Shown here: positions 3,891 to 36,599 of the stretch, one piece after another
How the letters are laid out: each line of letters opens with the position of its first letter
Position numbering within the stretch: position 1 is the stretch's first letter
DNA from: Acidobacteriota bacterium
GTDB lineage: Bacteria > Acidobacteriota > Blastocatellia > Pyrinomonadales > Pyrinomonadaceae
Direction: 5' to 3'
DNA length: 64,000 bases
Assembly: GCA_019639235.1 (NCBI GenBank)
Contig: JAHBSG010000007.1
Span: forward strand, 62,001-126,000
Position numbers and translations under genes: made by a program
The notes under the pieces: model-generated
The model's input: only the letters and a program-made list of their open reading frames with translations
Told to the model about the DNA's origin: nothing
The model's database searches: none

Positions 3891-4517
3891 ATGGCGAAGG
3901 CTCCAACCTATCGAAACCGCATCGTCGGCCACGGTGAAAAAACGGCCTCGGAGTTCCAGGTGAACCCGCTGAACTGGCGGAAGCACCCCGAACCGCAGCA
4001 GCAGGCGATCCGCGAACTTCTTCGGTCCGTTGGCTGGGTGACGGGTGTTATCGAGAACGTGCGGACCGGGAACCTGATCGACGGGCACCTCCGGATCGAA
4101 GAAGCCCTGGCATCAACGCCGAAGGCGAAGATCCCGTACACGCAGGTCGACCTCTCCGAAGAGGAGGAACGAAAGATCCTGCTTCTTCTCGACCCGGTCG
4201 GATCAATGGCCACGGCCGATGAAGAGCTGATCCAGGAGCTAATGGCCATCGTTGGCTTGCAGGAGGACACGCTTCTCGACGCCCTCACGGCCTTTACCGA
4301 TACCGGAATAAAGGCAGAGGACCTCGGGGAATCGTTCGAACTCCCGGCCGGGGATCGCGAACCGTTCCAGCAGCTGACGTTCACGGTGACGGACGAACAG
4401 GCCGAAACTCTGAAGGCGGCACTCGAAAAGGCGAAAAAGGCCGGGCCATTCGTGGACACGGGGAATGAAAACAGCAACGGGAACGCATTAGCGCGGATCG
4501 CGGAAGCCTATGTTTAG
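3891..4517 (+). CDS. ParB-like nuclease-domain protein (ParB/Srx fold)
   Basis: 208 residues. The N-terminal 100 residues follow the phage ParB-like pattern: VNPLNWRKHPEPQQQAI, LLRSVGWVTGVI, NLIDGHLRIEEAL. The GHLR is the nucleotide-binding GxxR-type motif of the ParB/Srx fold. The C-terminal part is a separate helical region with no recognised domain. Its end overlaps the mom-like gene by 8 bp, so the two are probably translationally coupled. ParB-like proteins often accompany DNA-modifying or terminase genes in phages; a CTP-binding or nicking activity is possible but not shown by the sequence. Confidence 0.75.
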   Translation: MAKAPTYRNRIVGHGEKTASEFQVNPLNWRKHPEPQQQAIRELLRSVGWVTGVIENVRTGNLIDGHLRIEEALASTPKAKIPYTQVDLSEEEERKILLLLDPVGSMATADEELIQELMAIVGLQEDTLLDALTAFTDTGIKAEDLGESFELPAGDREPFQQLTFTVTDEQAETLKAALEKAKKAGPFVDTGNENSNGNALARIAEAYV

Positions 4518-5301
4518 GGTCAAAGACATCGTTATCAAGCTCGTGCCGGCGGCGACGGCGAATGCGTTCGTCCGCCGATATCACTACTCCGGGAAGGTGG
4601 TGAACAATTCCCGACTGCACTTCGGAGCCTTTCTCGGAGACAGGCTCCACGGCGTCATGTCCTTCGGCTCGCCACTCGATAAGCGAAAGGTCCTCGGGCT
4701 CGTTAAGGGAACGCTCTGGAACGAAATGCTCGAACTGAACCGGATGGCATTCGACGATGCCCTGCCGAAGAACAGCGAATCACGCTCGCTATCCGTCGCC
4801 CTGCGGATGATCCGGAAAAACGCCCCGCACATAAAGTGGGTGATCTCGTTTGCGGACGGGATGCAATGCGGCGACGGCACGATCTACCGGGCGAGCGGTT
4901 TTCTGTTGACCGGATTTTCGTCGGCGTCGATGTACGAGCTCCCGGAGGATCTCGCAAAGATCAACGGCGGCCCTATCGCTCACCGGCTCTCGCTCCAGTG
5001 CAAAACATCGACGCTCTCACGCGAGATCATGCGTCGGACGAAGGGTAAGAACCTCACGAATTCGGAGTACTGCAATCTGCTCGGAATGAAGATCGTTCCC
5101 GGTCATATGCTCCGATATATGTACTTCCTGCAACCCGAGGAACGGGCCAACCTTACGGTCCCCGTGCTTCCGTTCTCGGAGATCGAAAAACGTGGTGCCG
5201 GGATGTACCGCGGTGAAAAACGCGTGGCAAGCATAGATGGCGATGCGGCCGGCTTCCAGCCGGAGGAGAGCGGTTCGAGCCCGACTGCCACGCTCCAATA
5301 A
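4510..5301 (+). CDS. mom: Mom-like DNA adenine modification protein (GNAT-related)
   Basis: 263 residues, close to Mu Mom in length. Recognisable family features: YHYSG at 24-28, HFGAFLGDRLHGVMSFG at about 37-53, LELNRMAF at 74-81, NSESR at 88-92, KWVISFADG at about 109-117 and YRASGF at 126-131. Mom converts adenine in DNA to N6-(carbamoylmethyl)adenine and protects phage DNA from restriction. The gene overlaps a ParB-like gene; no Com-like zinc regulator is present, so control differs from Mu. The last 26 residues do not look like part of the fold, because that DNA is also a complete tRNA-like element (5222-5297) that ends two bases before the stop codon's first base. The terminase small subunit follows after a 30-bp gap. 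Confidence 0.8.
   Translation: MFRVKDIVIKLVPAATANAFVRRYHYSGKVVNNSRLHFGAFLGDRLHGVMSFGSPLDKRKVLGLVKGTLWNEMLELNRMAFDDALPKNSESRSLSVALRMIRKNAPHIKWVISFADGMQCGDGTIYRASGFLLTGFSSASMYELPEDLAKINGGPIAHRLSLQCKTSTLSREIMRRTKGKNLTNSEYCNLLGMKIVPGHMLRYMYFLQPEERANLTVPVLPFSEIEKRGAGMYRGEKRVASIDGDAAGFQPEESGSSPTATLQ
5222..5297 (+). ncRNA. tRNA-Gly(UCC)-like element inside the 3' end of mom
   Basis: 76 nt with full tRNA architecture: acceptor GCGTGGC (5222-5228) pairs 7/7 with GCCACGC (5287-5293), then U73 and an encoded CCA. The D stem is GCAT/ATGC with A14 and a GG pair in the loop. The anticodon arm has four GC pairs, U33 and anticodon UCC. The T arm has a TTCGA loop and a five-pair stem AGCGG/CCG(A)CT with a bulged A. 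Bacterial glycine identity elements G1-C72, C2-G71, G3-C70, G10-C25, C35, C36 and U73 are all present. Departures from a normal tRNA are A instead of U8, G instead of A21, a 27-43 mismatch and the T-stem bulge. It overlaps the mom coding sequence in sense. Confidence 0.65.
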
Positions 5302-5331
5302 AACTTGTCAAACAATAGGAGGTTGTCAGCA

Positions 5332-5865
5332 ATGGTTGCCGGTGACGGCACAAAAAAGCGAGGAAAGCGACGATCGCCGCAAACGACAGCAAGGGTGATC
5401 GACCGCGGTTCGCGGATCCTTGAACTCAGAAAGAACGGTGCATCGCTGCGGGCCATTTCGGCCGCCTTGAAGAAGGAGGCCGAGGCGAAGGGCGAATCGG
5501 ACCGGGGTTATAGCTACGAGCAGGTCCGGAAGGACTACAACGCGATCATCGACCTTCGGATCGAGGAACAGCAGGAAACGCTCGAAGAGATCCGGGCGAT
5601 ATCGGCCGAGCGGCTCGAAGAGGTCCTTTTGCACTACATGCCTTACGTCCGGCTGAAAGTGGACGGCCTTACTCCGCGAAACGAGGTCGAACTGAAAAAG
5701 AAGGCCGGGGACACGGTGATCAAGGCAGTGAAGGAGCTGGCGGAGCTGTACGGGGCGAAGCGGCCGCAGAAGCTCGAGGTCACGGGCGAGGACGGCAAAC
5801 CGCTGAACGTCGTGACGCAGGTGATCGTCGAGTTTACGAACGAGACCGGGGAGGACCGCGAATGA
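5332..5865 (+). CDS. terS: Terminase small subunit
   Basis: 177 residues from ATG 5332, with AGGAGG nine bases upstream; a TTG at 5305 is in frame but has no ribosome-binding site. The N-terminal third is basic and helix-turn-helix-like (ILELRKNGASLRAISAAL), a coiled-coil middle (LEEIRAISAERLEEVLLHYM) probably drives oligomerisation, and the C-terminal KLEVTGEDGKPL segment is typical of phage small terminases. It recognises phage DNA and hands it to the large subunit. The gene follows the mom tRNA-like element and overlaps the next small gene by 4 bp. Confidence 0.7.
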   Translation: MVAGDGTKKRGKRRSPQTTARVIDRGSRILELRKNGASLRAISAALKKEAEAKGESDRGYSYEQVRKDYNAIIDLRIEEQQETLEEIRAISAERLEEVLLHYMPYVRLKVDGLTPRNEVELKKKAGDTVIKAVKELAELYGAKRPQKLEVTGEDGKPLNVVTQVIVEFTNETGEDRE

Positions 5866-6068
5866 GGGGCCGAACGGAGTTCACGATGTGCCGGCGAAAG
5901 AAGCGGTACACGATCCGGCAGGCCCATCGCGTAGCCGGCCATTTGAACGAACGGCAAAAGAAGCGGGTCCACAGTTACCGCTGCCCGGTATGCGGGCATT
6001 ATCACGTTGGCGGATACGGAAAGAATGACCGTGAGCGCACAGATCCCGAAGATCAAACTGCCGCGTAA
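5862..6068 (+). CDS. Small zinc-ribbon protein between the terminase genes
   Basis: 68 residues; ATG 5862 overlaps the terS stop (ATGA). It is strongly basic (CRRKKRY near the N-terminus) and ends its core with YRCPVCGHYHVGGYG, a Cys/His cluster. Small proteins with a K-rich N-terminus, A/H-rich helix and CPxCGxxHxG ending are common next to phage packaging genes. It overlaps the large terminase start by about 40 bp. Probable nucleic-acid-binding accessory protein; exact role unknown. Confidence 0.6.
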   Translation: MRGRTEFTMCRRKKRYTIRQAHRVAGHLNERQKKRVHSYRCPVCGHYHVGGYGKNDRERTDPEDQTAA

Positions 6069-7257
6069 GTTCGGCACGGTTTGGAACTCGCTTCGCCCGT
6101 ATCAGATCTGGTACGGCGGCCGCGGTTCGGCAAAATCGTGGACGAAGGCGACGCAGTTCCTGCTCAAGGCACAGTCGCAGAGGTATTTCCGGGGCGTTTT
6201 TGCTCGCGACACGCAGAAGAACGTCCGGGCCTCGCAGTTCCAGCTTTTTAAGGACCTCGTCCGGCGCTTTCCGTGCTTTCACAATCAGTTCACGTTCCAG
6301 GAATCCGGGATGCGGATCACGTGCCGGGCGACGGGCAACTACATGATGGGCGGTTCGTTCGAGCAGCCCGACACGCTTCGCTCGGTCCCGGACCCGACCG
6401 ACTTCTGGGCCGAGGAGCCGATCACGCGGGAATCGCAGATAAACCGGCAGGACTTTCTCGACATTGTCGGCTCGCTGCGGAACCCCGAGGGCGTCCAGAC
6501 GCAGTTTCATTTCACGTTCAACCCGATCTCGATGCAAACGTGGATCTACGAGGATTTCTTTCTCAAGAACCTCTACGACTGCGAGAAGCTCTTTATCAAC
6601 TATTGGGAGAACCCGTACTGCCCGCAATCGACGATCGACTTCCTCGAATCGCTGAAGATCATTGACCCGAAGCGGTACCGGGTCGATGCCCTCGGCGAAT
6701 GGGGAATTGCCCACGAGGGCCTGATCTACAAGGACTGGGAGGCTGTCGACGAGATGCCCGAGCCGGATTACTACGGCGTCGATTTCGGCCACACGAACCC
6801 GGCCGCACTAGTCCAGGCGGCGGTCCGCGACGAAATGGGGCGACCGAAGAAAACGCTCTTTTGGAACGAGCTGCTTTATGAGTCCGGCCACACCGAGGCC
6901 TCGCTGATCGCCCGTTTCCGCGAGATCGGTGTCAAGAAGCACATTCCGATGATCTGCGATAACGAATCTCCGGCGACGATCGAGGCACTTCGGCGGGCGG
7001 GTTACCGGGCGGTTCCGTGCAAGAAATACGCCGGAAGCGTTTGGGACGGAATCAACCACGTCCTCGACCACGAGCTAAAGATCGTCCGCGGATCGGAGAA
7101 CCTCTTTGCGGAGATCGGCAACTACTGCTGGGACGTGCTGCCGAACGGAAAGCTCCGCGAGGAGCCGGAAAAGAACTCGGTCTGCCACGCACTCGATGCC
7201 GGCCGATACGCGGCCGAGGGGACGAAGCGAAAGCCGGGGCAATTCTACAGCTGGTAA
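6025..7257 (+). CDS. terL: Terminase large subunit (ATPase-nuclease)
   Basis: 410 residues, complete. Packaging ATPase: Walker A GGRGSAKS at 31-38 and acidic Walker B/coupling region DFWAEEP at 126-132. C-terminal RNase H-like nuclease: GVDFGHTNP with D253, MICDNES with D312 and CHALDAGRYA with D391 supply the metal-binding aspartates. It belongs to the Terminase_3-like group. The start could be ATG 6025 or GTG 6031, the latter better spaced from GGAAAG at 6018-6023; a TTG at 6007 is also in frame. It sits between the small subunit and the portal as usual for tailed phages. Confidence 0.92.
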   Translation: MTVSAQIPKIKLPRKFGTVWNSLRPYQIWYGGRGSAKSWTKATQFLLKAQSQRYFRGVFARDTQKNVRASQFQLFKDLVRRFPCFHNQFTFQESGMRITCRATGNYMMGGSFEQPDTLRSVPDPTDFWAEEPITRESQINRQDFLDIVGSLRNPEGVQTQFHFTFNPISMQTWIYEDFFLKNLYDCEKLFINYWENPYCPQSTIDFLESLKIIDPKRYRVDALGEWGIAHEGLIYKDWEAVDEMPEPDYYGVDFGHTNPAALVQAAVRDEMGRPKKTLFWNELLYESGHTEASLIARFREIGVKKHIPMICDNESPATIEALRRAGYRAVPCKKYAGSVWDGINHVLDHELKIVRGSENLFAEIGNYCWDVLPNGKLREEPEKNSVCHALDAGRYAAEGTKRKPGQFYSW

Positions 7258-36523: not shown

Positions 36524-36599
36524 GTCCGGTTCGTCTAGGGGTCTAGGACACCGCCCTTTCACGGCGGCAACACGGGTTCGAATCCCGTACCGGATACCA
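36524..36599 (+). tRNA. tRNA-Glu (UUC)
   Basis: 76 nt: acceptor GTCCGGT/ACCGGAT with A73 and encoded CCA, D arm TCGTCTAGGGGTCTAGGA, anticodon stem CCGCC/GGCGG with loop CTTTCAC giving anticodon TTC, T arm ACGGG-TTCGAAT-CCCGT. All arms pair as in standard bacterial tRNA-Glu. Confidence 0.95.

What the first reader, a model, noticed from the sequence alone, without database searches (positions are those of the whole stretch)
5222..5297. A glycine-type tRNA-like element is embedded in the 3' end of a mom-like DNA modification gene
Seen directly: 76 nt fold as a tRNA (7/7 acceptor pairs, encoded CCA, D arm, anticodon arm with UCC, TTCGA T loop) and lie wholly inside the mom-like coding sequence, whose last 26 codons are dictated by it. 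All main bacterial glycine identity positions match (G1-C72, C2-G71, G3-C70, G10-C25, C35, C36, U73), while U8 is A, A21 is G and the T stem has a bulge, features likely to harm normal decoding or EF-Tu binding. Known: the Mom base is N6-(carbamoylmethyl)adenine, that is, adenine bearing a glycinamide unit; Mom is GNAT-related, as are aminoacyl-tRNA-dependent transferases; Staphylococcus uses EF-Tu-evading tRNA-Gly(UCC) variants as glycine donors for Fem enzymes. Inference: this element, charged with glycine, may be the dedicated donor for Mom, or may mark RNA processing between mom and terS.
Basis: partly seen in the sequence, partly recalled or inferred. Interest (0 to 1): 0.93.

Follow-up and report, generated by a model that had tools for sequence, protein, structure and literature searches.

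The report
Phage tRNA-like donor for DNA modification
Many phages carry, inside or beside the gene for the DNA-modifying enzyme Mom, a gene for a small tRNA-like RNA with the marks of a glycine tRNA but with features that would keep it out of protein synthesis, so it likely serves as the private glycine supply for the modification that is thought to shield phage DNA from host restriction enzymes.

Summary
The element at 5222-5297 is real. It belongs to a tRNA-like RNA family at the 3' ends of mom genes: 76 of 81 loci fetched by the Mom protein have it. A DNA pattern that ignores mom found 119 matches; 110 lie within 50 nt of a mom stop, seven look like ordinary tRNAs and two sit near contig ends. 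A model trained only on elements beside a distant Mom subfamily finds the window element at E 5.8e-13. The stems covary. Bacterial glycine identity is almost invariant, while decoding and EF-Tu features are eroded: a bulged A in the T stem, missing U33, 6- or 8-nt anticodon loops. The RNA flips strand relative to mom, and convergent copies have a Bacteroidota-type promoter box, which fits a trans-acting RNA. The Mom base is adenine plus one glycyl unit (recalled), so I infer that the charged RNA is Mom's glycine donor. Charging and donation are untested. Mu-type Mom loci lack the element and may use host Gly-tRNA. My literature searches found no report of this link.

The parts
4510..5301 (+). 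mom-like gene, 263 aa; GNAT-fold DNA adenine modification enzyme
5222..5297 (+). glycine-type tRNA-like element with encoded CCA, wholly inside the mom frame
   Evidence: R2 57.5 bits E 5.8e-13; R1 60.3 bits (not independent); Rfam tRNA 21.7 bits, below gathering
5222..5228 (+). acceptor stem, 5' strand GCGTGGC (G1, C2, G3 = glycine identity)
   Evidence: sequence; G1-C72 and C2-G71 in 145 of 145, G3-C70 in 132 of 145 distinct model hits after leaving out five doubtful ones
5255..5257 (+). anticodon UCC (C35, C36 = glycine identity)
   Evidence: sequence; CC kept in the loop of 140 of 145 elements
5269..5286 (+). T arm AGCGG-TTCGAGC-CCG(a)CT
   Evidence: sequence; the T-stem pairs modelled form in 100% of cells in A1 and A6
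5284..5284 (+). bulged A in the 3' strand of the T stem, two pairs from the acceptor stem; hallmark of the family
   Evidence: invariant column in A1, 34 of 34 elements found by ARAGORN before any model of mine; bulged T stem in 134 of 145 elements, nucleotide A in 130; 2 of 107 ordinary tRNAs by the same parser
5287..5294 (+). acceptor stem 3' strand GCCACGC and discriminator U73
   Evidence: sequence; U73 in 141 of 145 elements, A73 in 4
5295..5297 (+). encoded CCA
   Evidence: sequence; CCA follows N73 in 49 of 126 same-strand and 1 of 57 convergent distinct elements
5221..5298 (+). codons 238-263 of mom, which read through the element; predicted unstructured tail
   Evidence: AF2 pLDDT under 50 for residues 241-263
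5305..5865 (+). next gene; putative terminase small subunit by position before TerL (6007-7257)
   Evidence: its PHROG hit phrog_645 is labelled 'Rnase E'; the same place in Psychrobacter phage Y8A is annotated terminase small subunit

Best explanation
The element at 5222-5297 is a phage-encoded, glycine-identity tRNA-like RNA that is likely charged with glycine by the host glycyl-tRNA synthetase and would hand that glycine to the neighbouring Mom enzyme for building its modified adenine. Shown here: the RNA family, its linkage to mom, its glycine identity letters, and its loss of canonical decoding and T-stem features. Inferred: it is transcribed, trimmed (and given CCA where none is encoded), and charged. 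The bulged T stem and odd anticodon loop would keep Gly-RNA away from EF-Tu and the ribosome, so it stays free for Mom. Mom, a GNAT-fold protein, would use the glycyl ester in place of an acyl-CoA. The known product, N6-(carbamoylmethyl)adenine, equals adenine plus glycine minus water (recalled structure). One route that I propose is transfer of the glycyl group to N6, followed by attack of its amine on C6, which leaves glycinamide attached through its amine. Moms without the RNA, such as Mu Mom, would use host Gly-tRNA.
For: (1) Linkage. 76 of 81 loci of window-type Mom (window plus the best 80 of 528 relatives) and 55 of 80 loci of a second Mom subfamily (best 80 of 596) have the element with its centre within 150 nt of a mom stop. 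Of 80 R1 hits in 564 kb, one lay away from a mom stop. Pattern search blind to mom: 110 of 119. (2) Structure. Covariation score 0.793 against 0.210 shuffled and 0.860 against 0.202; independent model E 5.8e-13. (3) Identity. In 145 model hits: G1-C72 145, C2-G71 145, U73 141, CC in the anticodon loop 140. These are the published glycine determinants (PMC9976931, passages), and U73 protects Gly-tRNA from DTD (PMC6097841, passages). (4) Non-decoding. 38 of 145 have a 7-nt loop with U33 and C35C36; bulged T stem 134 of 145 against 2 of 107 ordinary tRNAs. EF-Tu binding depends on the T arm. (5) Trans-acting. 44 of 152 element-bearing Mom rows have it on the opposite strand; on a tree of 150 of them parsimony needs 24 orientation changes, 14 forced by starred branches. 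Convergent copies have a TAnnTTTG box starting -20 to -12 in 26 of 37, shuffled mean 1.4. (6) The family stands beside two deeply separated Mom groups and in genomes labelled as many phyla.
Against: No experiment shows expression, charging or donation. Mu-type Moms have no element: 0 of 32 loci from the Mu query, 14 of which had under 150 nt downstream; 14 of 16 named phages searched lack it with room to spare and Mu itself is cut; ten of 15 whole phage records, Mu among them, have no R1 hit. So Mom chemistry cannot need this RNA everywhere. Of the 80 genome loci, 14 with window-type Mom lack an adjacent element even after copies missed by R1 are added, mostly Bacillota by title; 24 of 80 loci of the second subfamily lack it within 150 nt. 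The closest GNAT neighbours by fold use acyl-CoA, and no aminoacyl-tRNA transferase stood among the rows shown. The published proposal is an acyl-CoA donor such as glycyl-CoA (PMC7824862, passage). Simple acyl transfer would give the isomer N6-glycyladenine, so a rearrangement must be assumed. Counts of identity letters come from hits of models trained on such elements, which favours agreement.
Confidence: 0.7

Rival explanations
1. The RNA binds Mom or the mom messenger as an uncharged cofactor, guide or brake (Mom is reported to be toxic when expressed artificially), and glycine identity is a relic of its tRNA origin.
For: Tight linkage to mom. Mom is described as toxic when artificially expressed (PMC12707154, passage).
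Against: G1-C72, C2-G71, U73 and the anticodon CC stay nearly fixed while most other stem pairs and the D arm change. A relic would be expected to lose charging letters as readily as it lost U33.
Confidence: 0.12
2. It is an ordinary tRNA-Gly(UCC) that supplements translation of the phage.
For: UCC anticodon, and the window copy itself has a 7-nt loop with U33. Many phages carry tRNAs.
Against: 107 of 145 elements lack a decoding-type loop and 134 of 145 have the T-stem bulge, some lack most of the D arm, and no other isotype takes this place: in the default ARAGORN calls on 80 loci every tRNA with a readable triplet anticodon was Gly.
Confidence: 0.04
3. It protects against a host defence that attacks glycyl-tRNA or its anticodon (a decoy), and shares a counter-defence locus with mom.
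For: Phage-borne tRNA variants that resist anticodon nucleases are known (recalled). The GNAT toxin TacT reads U73 and G71 of Gly-tRNA (PMC9976931, passage).
Against: A decoy need not sit beside mom, yet 110 of 119 pattern matches do, and the exceptions were not members of the family except two near contig ends. That pattern covers one class of elements only.
Confidence: 0.05
4. It is a cis-acting signal: a processing mark, terminator or attachment site at the mom 3' end.
For: It lies at the gene end, and phages often integrate at tRNA genes (recalled).
Against: Both strands are used and have switched many times. Convergent copies have their own promoter box. The window genome holds no second copy of 5200-5310.
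Confidence: 0.03

Closest known systems
Staphylococcal non-proteinogenic tRNA-Gly isoacceptors for FemX, FemA and FemB
   Same: Glycine-identity tRNAs with T-stem changes thought to weaken EF-Tu binding, kept as amino-acid donors for non-ribosomal transferases (PMC4052509 and PMC6097841, passages).
   Different: Those are host genes for cell-wall peptides and use pair substitutions (A49-U65, A51-U63) and loss of GG18-19. The phage family has a T-stem bulge, variable anticodon loops, sometimes no clear D arm, and sits with a DNA-modifying enzyme. The window copy keeps GG in its D loop.
Mom DNA modification of phage Mu (PF25680; PDB 8bv8)
   Same: Same protein family and fold; the serine mutated in the inactive Mu mutant is kept as S91.
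   Different: Mu has the Com regulator beside mom and no R1 hit anywhere in its record.
Aminoacyl-tRNA-dependent transferases (Fem, MprF, L/F transferase; PMC4052509 passages, and recalled)
   Same: Would use an aminoacyl-tRNA ester as donor; Fem and L/F transferases are GNAT-related (recalled).
   Different: Acceptors there are peptides, proteins or lipids, not a DNA base. No such chain was in the fold rows shown.
TacT-type GNAT toxins
   Same: TacT acts on Gly-tRNA-Gly and is directed by U73 and G71 (PMC9976931, passage); its GNAT fold is recalled.
   Different: It acetylates the glycine on the tRNA; here the glycine itself would be transferred.
Phage tRNA gene clusters
   Same: Phage-encoded tRNAs of similar size.
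   Different: Ordinary tRNAs of host and phage clusters examined here had unbulged T stems in 93 of 107, bulged in 2 and unclear in 12, and many isotypes.

Membership tests
Canonical bacterial tRNA-Gly | Seven-bp acceptor stem with G1-C72, C2-G71, U73 | tested here: met
   Window letters; 145, 145 and 141 of 145 in the family
Canonical bacterial tRNA-Gly | C35 and C36 in the anticodon | tested here: met
   UCC at 5255-5257; CC in the loop of 140 of 145
Canonical bacterial tRNA-Gly | Uninterrupted five-bp T stem | tested here: not met
   Bulged A at 5284; bulge in 134 of 145 elements, 2 of 107 ordinary tRNAs
Canonical bacterial tRNA-Gly | Seven-nt anticodon loop with U33 | tested here: inconclusive
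   Met in the window copy, but only 38 of 145 family members have 7 nt, U33 and C35C36
Canonical bacterial tRNA-Gly | U8 | tested here: not met
   A8 in the window
Rfam RF00005 tRNA | Score at or above gathering (29 bits) | tested here: not met
   21.7 bits; not listed at gathering
Staphylococcal non-proteinogenic tRNA-Gly | A49-U65 and A51-U63 T-stem pairs; GG18-19 replaced | tested here: not met
   Window has A-U as the outermost T pair but C-G at the third pair and keeps GG in the D loop; outermost pair G-C in 30 of 34 of A1
Dedicated aminoacyl-tRNA donors | Charged in cells and used by a transferase | not testable with these tools
   Needs charging and transfer assays
Mom (PF25680) | Profile score over the curated cut-off | tested here: met
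   177.9 bits against 27.1
Mom (PF25680) | GNAT fold like Mu Mom | tested here: met
Mom (PF25680) | Makes N6-(carbamoylmethyl)adenine in DNA | not testable with these tools
   Needs mass spectrometry of this prophage's DNA
Phage attachment site at a tRNA gene | Second copy of the core in the host genome | tested here: not met
   Own-genome search with 5200-5310 found only itself

The most novel reading that the evidence does not exclude
Mom enzymes are aminoacyl-tRNA-dependent DNA-modifying enzymes: they insert a glycyl unit taken from Gly-tRNA between C6 and N6 of adenine. A large group of phages evolved a private, translation-blind tRNA-Gly to feed them, while Mu-type Moms draw on host Gly-tRNA. 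This would be the first tRNA-dependent DNA modification and would settle the donor of the Mom base.
Probability: 0.6. Interest if true: 0.98.

Novelty: categorically new. Interest (0 to 1): 0.95.

Why it matters
The donor of the Mom modification appears unsettled: a 2021 review names an acyl-CoA such as glycyl-CoA (PMC7824862, passage). A glycine-tRNA-like RNA tied this closely to mom in two Mom subfamilies makes the question directly testable. If right, aminoacyl-tRNA would enter DNA modification chemistry for what I believe is the first time. It would also add a widespread RNA family that standard tools often miss: ARAGORN at default of 81, and the paper on Psychrobacter phage Y8A states that no tRNA genes were found (PMC10434257, passage), yet two tandem copies lie between its mom and terS. 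Even if the donor idea fails, a tRNA-shaped RNA that co-travels with a DNA-modifying enzyme across many phyla would need a new explanation.

Tried and rejected
Plain folding energy does not mark the element (z -1.0), and ARAGORN at default and Rfam at gathering miss it, so single-sequence tests would have dismissed it.

ARAGORN at a threshold of 80 or 70 percent is swamped by chance calls (160 and 1227 away from mom), so it was not used for counts.

Attachment site: no second copy in the genome. Sigma-70-type promoters gave a modest excess over simple shuffles in both orientations (21 of 57 against a mean of 10.5, and 41 of 126 against 18.3) and were not used; the Bacteroidota box was clear.

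Far R1 hits in genome loci: L366 scores weakly (25.3 bits) and looks like an ordinary tRNA, and L320 lies 2 kb upstream and looks ordinary. L315, L330, L306 and L316 are element-like at 201-1308 nt; L306 also has an adjacent one, and the other three were counted as without. L088 is an ordinary phage tRNA that ARAGORN calls tRNA-Trp(CCA).

My first tally of identity letters used 194 distinct elements. It held 44 from a script pattern that itself required parts of the acceptor and the bulged A, and five doubtful hits (L366, L088, L320, one at L296 3339, L053 1010). I recounted without them, and the report uses the 145 left. The five left out lower the purity slightly: with them G1-C72 is 149 and U73 144 of 150. 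The L053 element left out here as degraded is still counted as adjacent.

Group counts from the tree (99 of 117 and 53 of 69) and the orientation and promoter counts include loci fetched because they hold the element, so the unbiased fractions are those. The tree label also misses L325, whose element R2 finds. The tree was the quick method, with long branches flagged.

Aminoacyl-tRNA transferases among fold neighbours: none in the rows shown, which does not exclude the relation. Literature searches with no hit for a Mom and aminoacyl-tRNA link; one search listed seven papers, of which I read passages in PMC10434257, PMC7824862 and PMC12707154 only. A passage of PMC8072286 mentions methylcarbamoyl transfer by a GNAT and cites Karambelkar 2020, which was not held. 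I did not see a paper behind PDB 8bv8; either may discuss the donor. A match listed for PMC8670742 was not in its main text, and passages of PMC6483171 say nothing on the donor.

Full report
Observation. The window lies in a 3.84 Mb bacterial genome at C44:62001-126000, in a phage-like region with mom, a putative terminase small subunit and the terminase large subunit. Single-sequence tests are lukewarm: no ARAGORN call at default, Rfam tRNA 21.7 bits against a gathering score of 29, folding energy not better than shuffles.

Linkage, forwards. A search with the window Mom in viral contigs gave 80 loci, the best of 528 relatives. At default settings ARAGORN calls a tRNA at the mom 3' end in 27 of 81 sources and none elsewhere; window hits beyond 20,000, which include an ordinary tRNA-Glu, were left out of that count. 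In L001-L080 every call with a readable triplet was Gly. I aligned 34 elements (A1), built model R1 and searched 97 sources, 564,190 bases, both strands. Of the 81 sources of this set, 76 have an element whose centre lies within 150 nt of a mom stop. Five do not: L004, L005, L011, L052, L078. L053 counts through another Mom ORF in that locus. Of the 80 R1 hits one lay away from mom (L088, an ordinary phage tRNA).

Other Mom sets. Named phages: 1 of 16, the Psychrobacter phage Y8A with two tandem copies; Mu is one of the others and is cut short after mom. Loci from a Mu Mom query: 0 of 32, of which 14 had under 150 nt downstream. Loci from a Listeria A511 Mom query: 1 of 14. Loci of a second, distant Mom subfamily (query A4, best 80 of 596): 55 of 80, and one more at 166 nt. 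Genome contigs (best 80 of 94): 36 of 80 by R1. A script adds seven Bradyrhizobium loci with a D-arm-reduced form, and R2 adds L325, which makes 44. Of the other 36, 21 (L352-L372) are weaker relatives, largely Mu- and JD024-like in the tree; L347 is cut; 14 are window-type Moms without an adjacent element, mostly Bacillota by title, three of them with an element-like hit 226-1308 nt away. Whole-record R1 searches found no hit in ten of 15 records, among them Mu, JD024, PAN70 and pAEv1818. The hits in PX29, Melnitz, PMBT69 and A511 coincide with, or lie among, ordinary phage tRNAs.

Linkage, backwards. In 110 of 119 the element centre lies -41 to +49 nt from the stop of an ORF that matches a Mom profile made here. 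All 110 have a GC./.GC acceptor, 106 have TCCA in the anticodon region and 3 have xCCA. Of the nine others, seven are tRNA-like sequences without the T-stem bulge. Four of these coincide with ARAGORN calls, tRNA-Met three times and tRNA-Gln once; L274 has the same letters as that tRNA-Gln; L173 is uncalled within a tRNA cluster, and L260 was judged by its letters alone. Two (L199, L224) are true elements near a contig end, where a convergent mom would be cut off.

Independent confirmation. Model R2 was built only from elements beside the distant Mom subfamily. In the window it finds 5222-5294 at 57.5 bits, E 5.8e-13; the next hit is 13.4 bits. Covariation is strong in both sets. A1: 97.3% of 655 cells paired, 17 of 20 pairs with changes on both sides, score 0.793 against 0.210 in shuffles and at most 0.174 when slid. 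A6: 99.2% of 969 cells, 16 of 19 pairs, 0.860 against 0.202. A6 was fitted to R1's structure, so its pair counts lean that way; A1 was aligned by MAFFT without structure. In both, the count of further pair types did not exceed shuffles clearly (69 and 410 of 500 as high).

What is conserved and what is lost. I tallied 145 distinct model hits after leaving out five doubtful ones. G1-C72 and C2-G71 hold in 145, G3-C70 in 132, U73 in 141 (A73 in 4). These letters, with C35 and C36, are the published bacterial glycine set (PMC9976931, passages). By contrast 134 of 145 have a T stem interrupted by one bulged nucleotide, A in 130 and T in 4; 3 are regular and 8 unclear. All 34 elements of A1, which ARAGORN had found before any model of mine, have the bulged A. 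The same parser finds a bulge in 2 of 107 ordinary tRNAs from the host and from phage clusters, with 93 regular and 12 unclear. Anticodon loops have 7 nt in 85, 8 in 43 and 6 in 17; among 7-nt loops U33 is present in 39 of 85, against 103 of 105 in ordinary tRNAs. Only 38 of 145 combine 7 nt, U33 and C35C36, yet CC is kept in 140. T loops begin TTC in 68, TGC in 37 and GGC in 16 of the 137 with full stems. A class in Bradyrhizobium, Rodentibacter, Desulfarculus, Gallibacterium, Psychrobacter phage and others is about 65-69 nt long and lacks a clear D arm. This is the pattern expected of an RNA that must be charged with glycine but must not decode or bind EF-Tu well. EF-Tu binding depends on the T arm, and staphylococcal donor tRNAs are altered there (PMC6097841 and PMC4052509, passages). 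The consequence for EF-Tu here is inferred.

A trans-acting RNA. The element may overlap the mom 3' end, follow it, or lie on the opposite strand. Of 152 element-bearing Mom rows 44 are opposite; on a tree of 150 of them parsimony needs 24 orientation changes, of which starred branches force 14, against 38.5 in shuffles. Convergent copies carry TAnnTTTG, named as the Bacteroidetes promoter consensus in a figure legend of PMC5682007 (passage), starting 20 to 12 nt upstream in 26 of 37 dereplicated upstream regions, shuffled mean 1.4 and maximum 5; same-strand copies have it in 3 of 95. So many copies look like transcription units of their own, which argues against a cis signal in the mom messenger. 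Same-strand copies such as the window's are presumably cut from the mom transcript (inferred).

Mom side. The window Mom matches PF25680 and the Mu Mom crystal structure 8bv8. The residue changed in the inactive Mu mutant S124A aligns with S91, and that column is nearly invariant. The AF2 model is confident to about residue 235 and falls below 50 for 241-263, almost the whole stretch that the element encodes, so the overlap seems to cost the protein little. A tree of 232 Moms places element-bearing rows in two groups (99 of 117, support 87; 53 of 69, support 99; counts that include loci fetched by the element) and none in the Mu and JD024 group of 21; the label needs 20 changes against 67.3 shuffled.

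Mechanism. The Mom base is N6-(carbamoylmethyl)adenine, that is adenine with glycinamide attached through its amine (recalled; PMC12923530 mentions carbamoylmethyl-modified adenines, passage). Its mass equals adenine plus glycine minus water, which is what transfer from Gly-tRNA would add. Direct acyl transfer to N6 gives the isomer N6-glycyladenine; attack of the free amine on C6 would convert it to the known base. This route is my proposal. Published text proposes an acyl-CoA such as glycyl-CoA (PMC7824862, passage). Linkage to a glycine-type RNA, and to no other isotype seen, is hard to explain unless glycine matters. Mu-type Moms would then use host Gly-tRNA; that the RNA is dispensable for some Moms is the main weakness of the case.

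Relation to known systems. It works like the staphylococcal donor tRNAs for Fem enzymes but is not a member of that set: defining letters were tested and not met. It is tRNA-like but fails defining tests of a canonical tRNA. I found no report of a tRNA linked to mom, but preprints and most subscription journals are not in the library.

Verdict. The donor model is the best explanation at about 0.7.

Noticed in passing
L345:743-2157, L333:763-2157, L335:761-2226, L287:1489-3531, L053 from 399: Several Mom ORFs in one locus. First copies of L345, L333, L335 and two of L287 are PF25680-positive; those of L345, L333 and L335 form a clade of their own without an element directly after them, as if two Moms shared one RNA.
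   Followed up: partly
window 3891-4517: ParB-like gene overlapping the mom start by 8 nt; a ParB/sulfiredoxin gene stands before mom in Psychrobacter phage Y8A too. It may act with Mom.
   Followed up: no
L081:3162-3299 (OQ059336.1), L003:3759-3909, L343:1499-1639, L306:2310-2479: Tandem pairs of elements near one mom gene.
   Followed up: partly
L336-L342, L349, L325, L296, L293, L321, L081: D-arm-reduced elements of about 65-69 nt, often with a motif like AAGNAGGCGAT in place of the D arm.
   Followed up: partly
L040:2262-2332, L050:3719-3791, L330:2347-2418, L436:1425-1498: Elements with A73 instead of U73, 4 of 145. U73 is said to protect bacterial Gly-tRNA from DTD, so these may come from hosts with other GlyRS or DTD habits.
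   Followed up: no
window 36524-36599: Ordinary tRNA-Glu(TTC) in the same window.
   Followed up: no
OQ059336.1 (Psychrobacter phage Y8A): Besides the mom with two elements, the paper lists another gene, ORF69, as methylcarbamoylase MOM and reports no tRNA genes (PMC10434257, passages).
   Followed up: no
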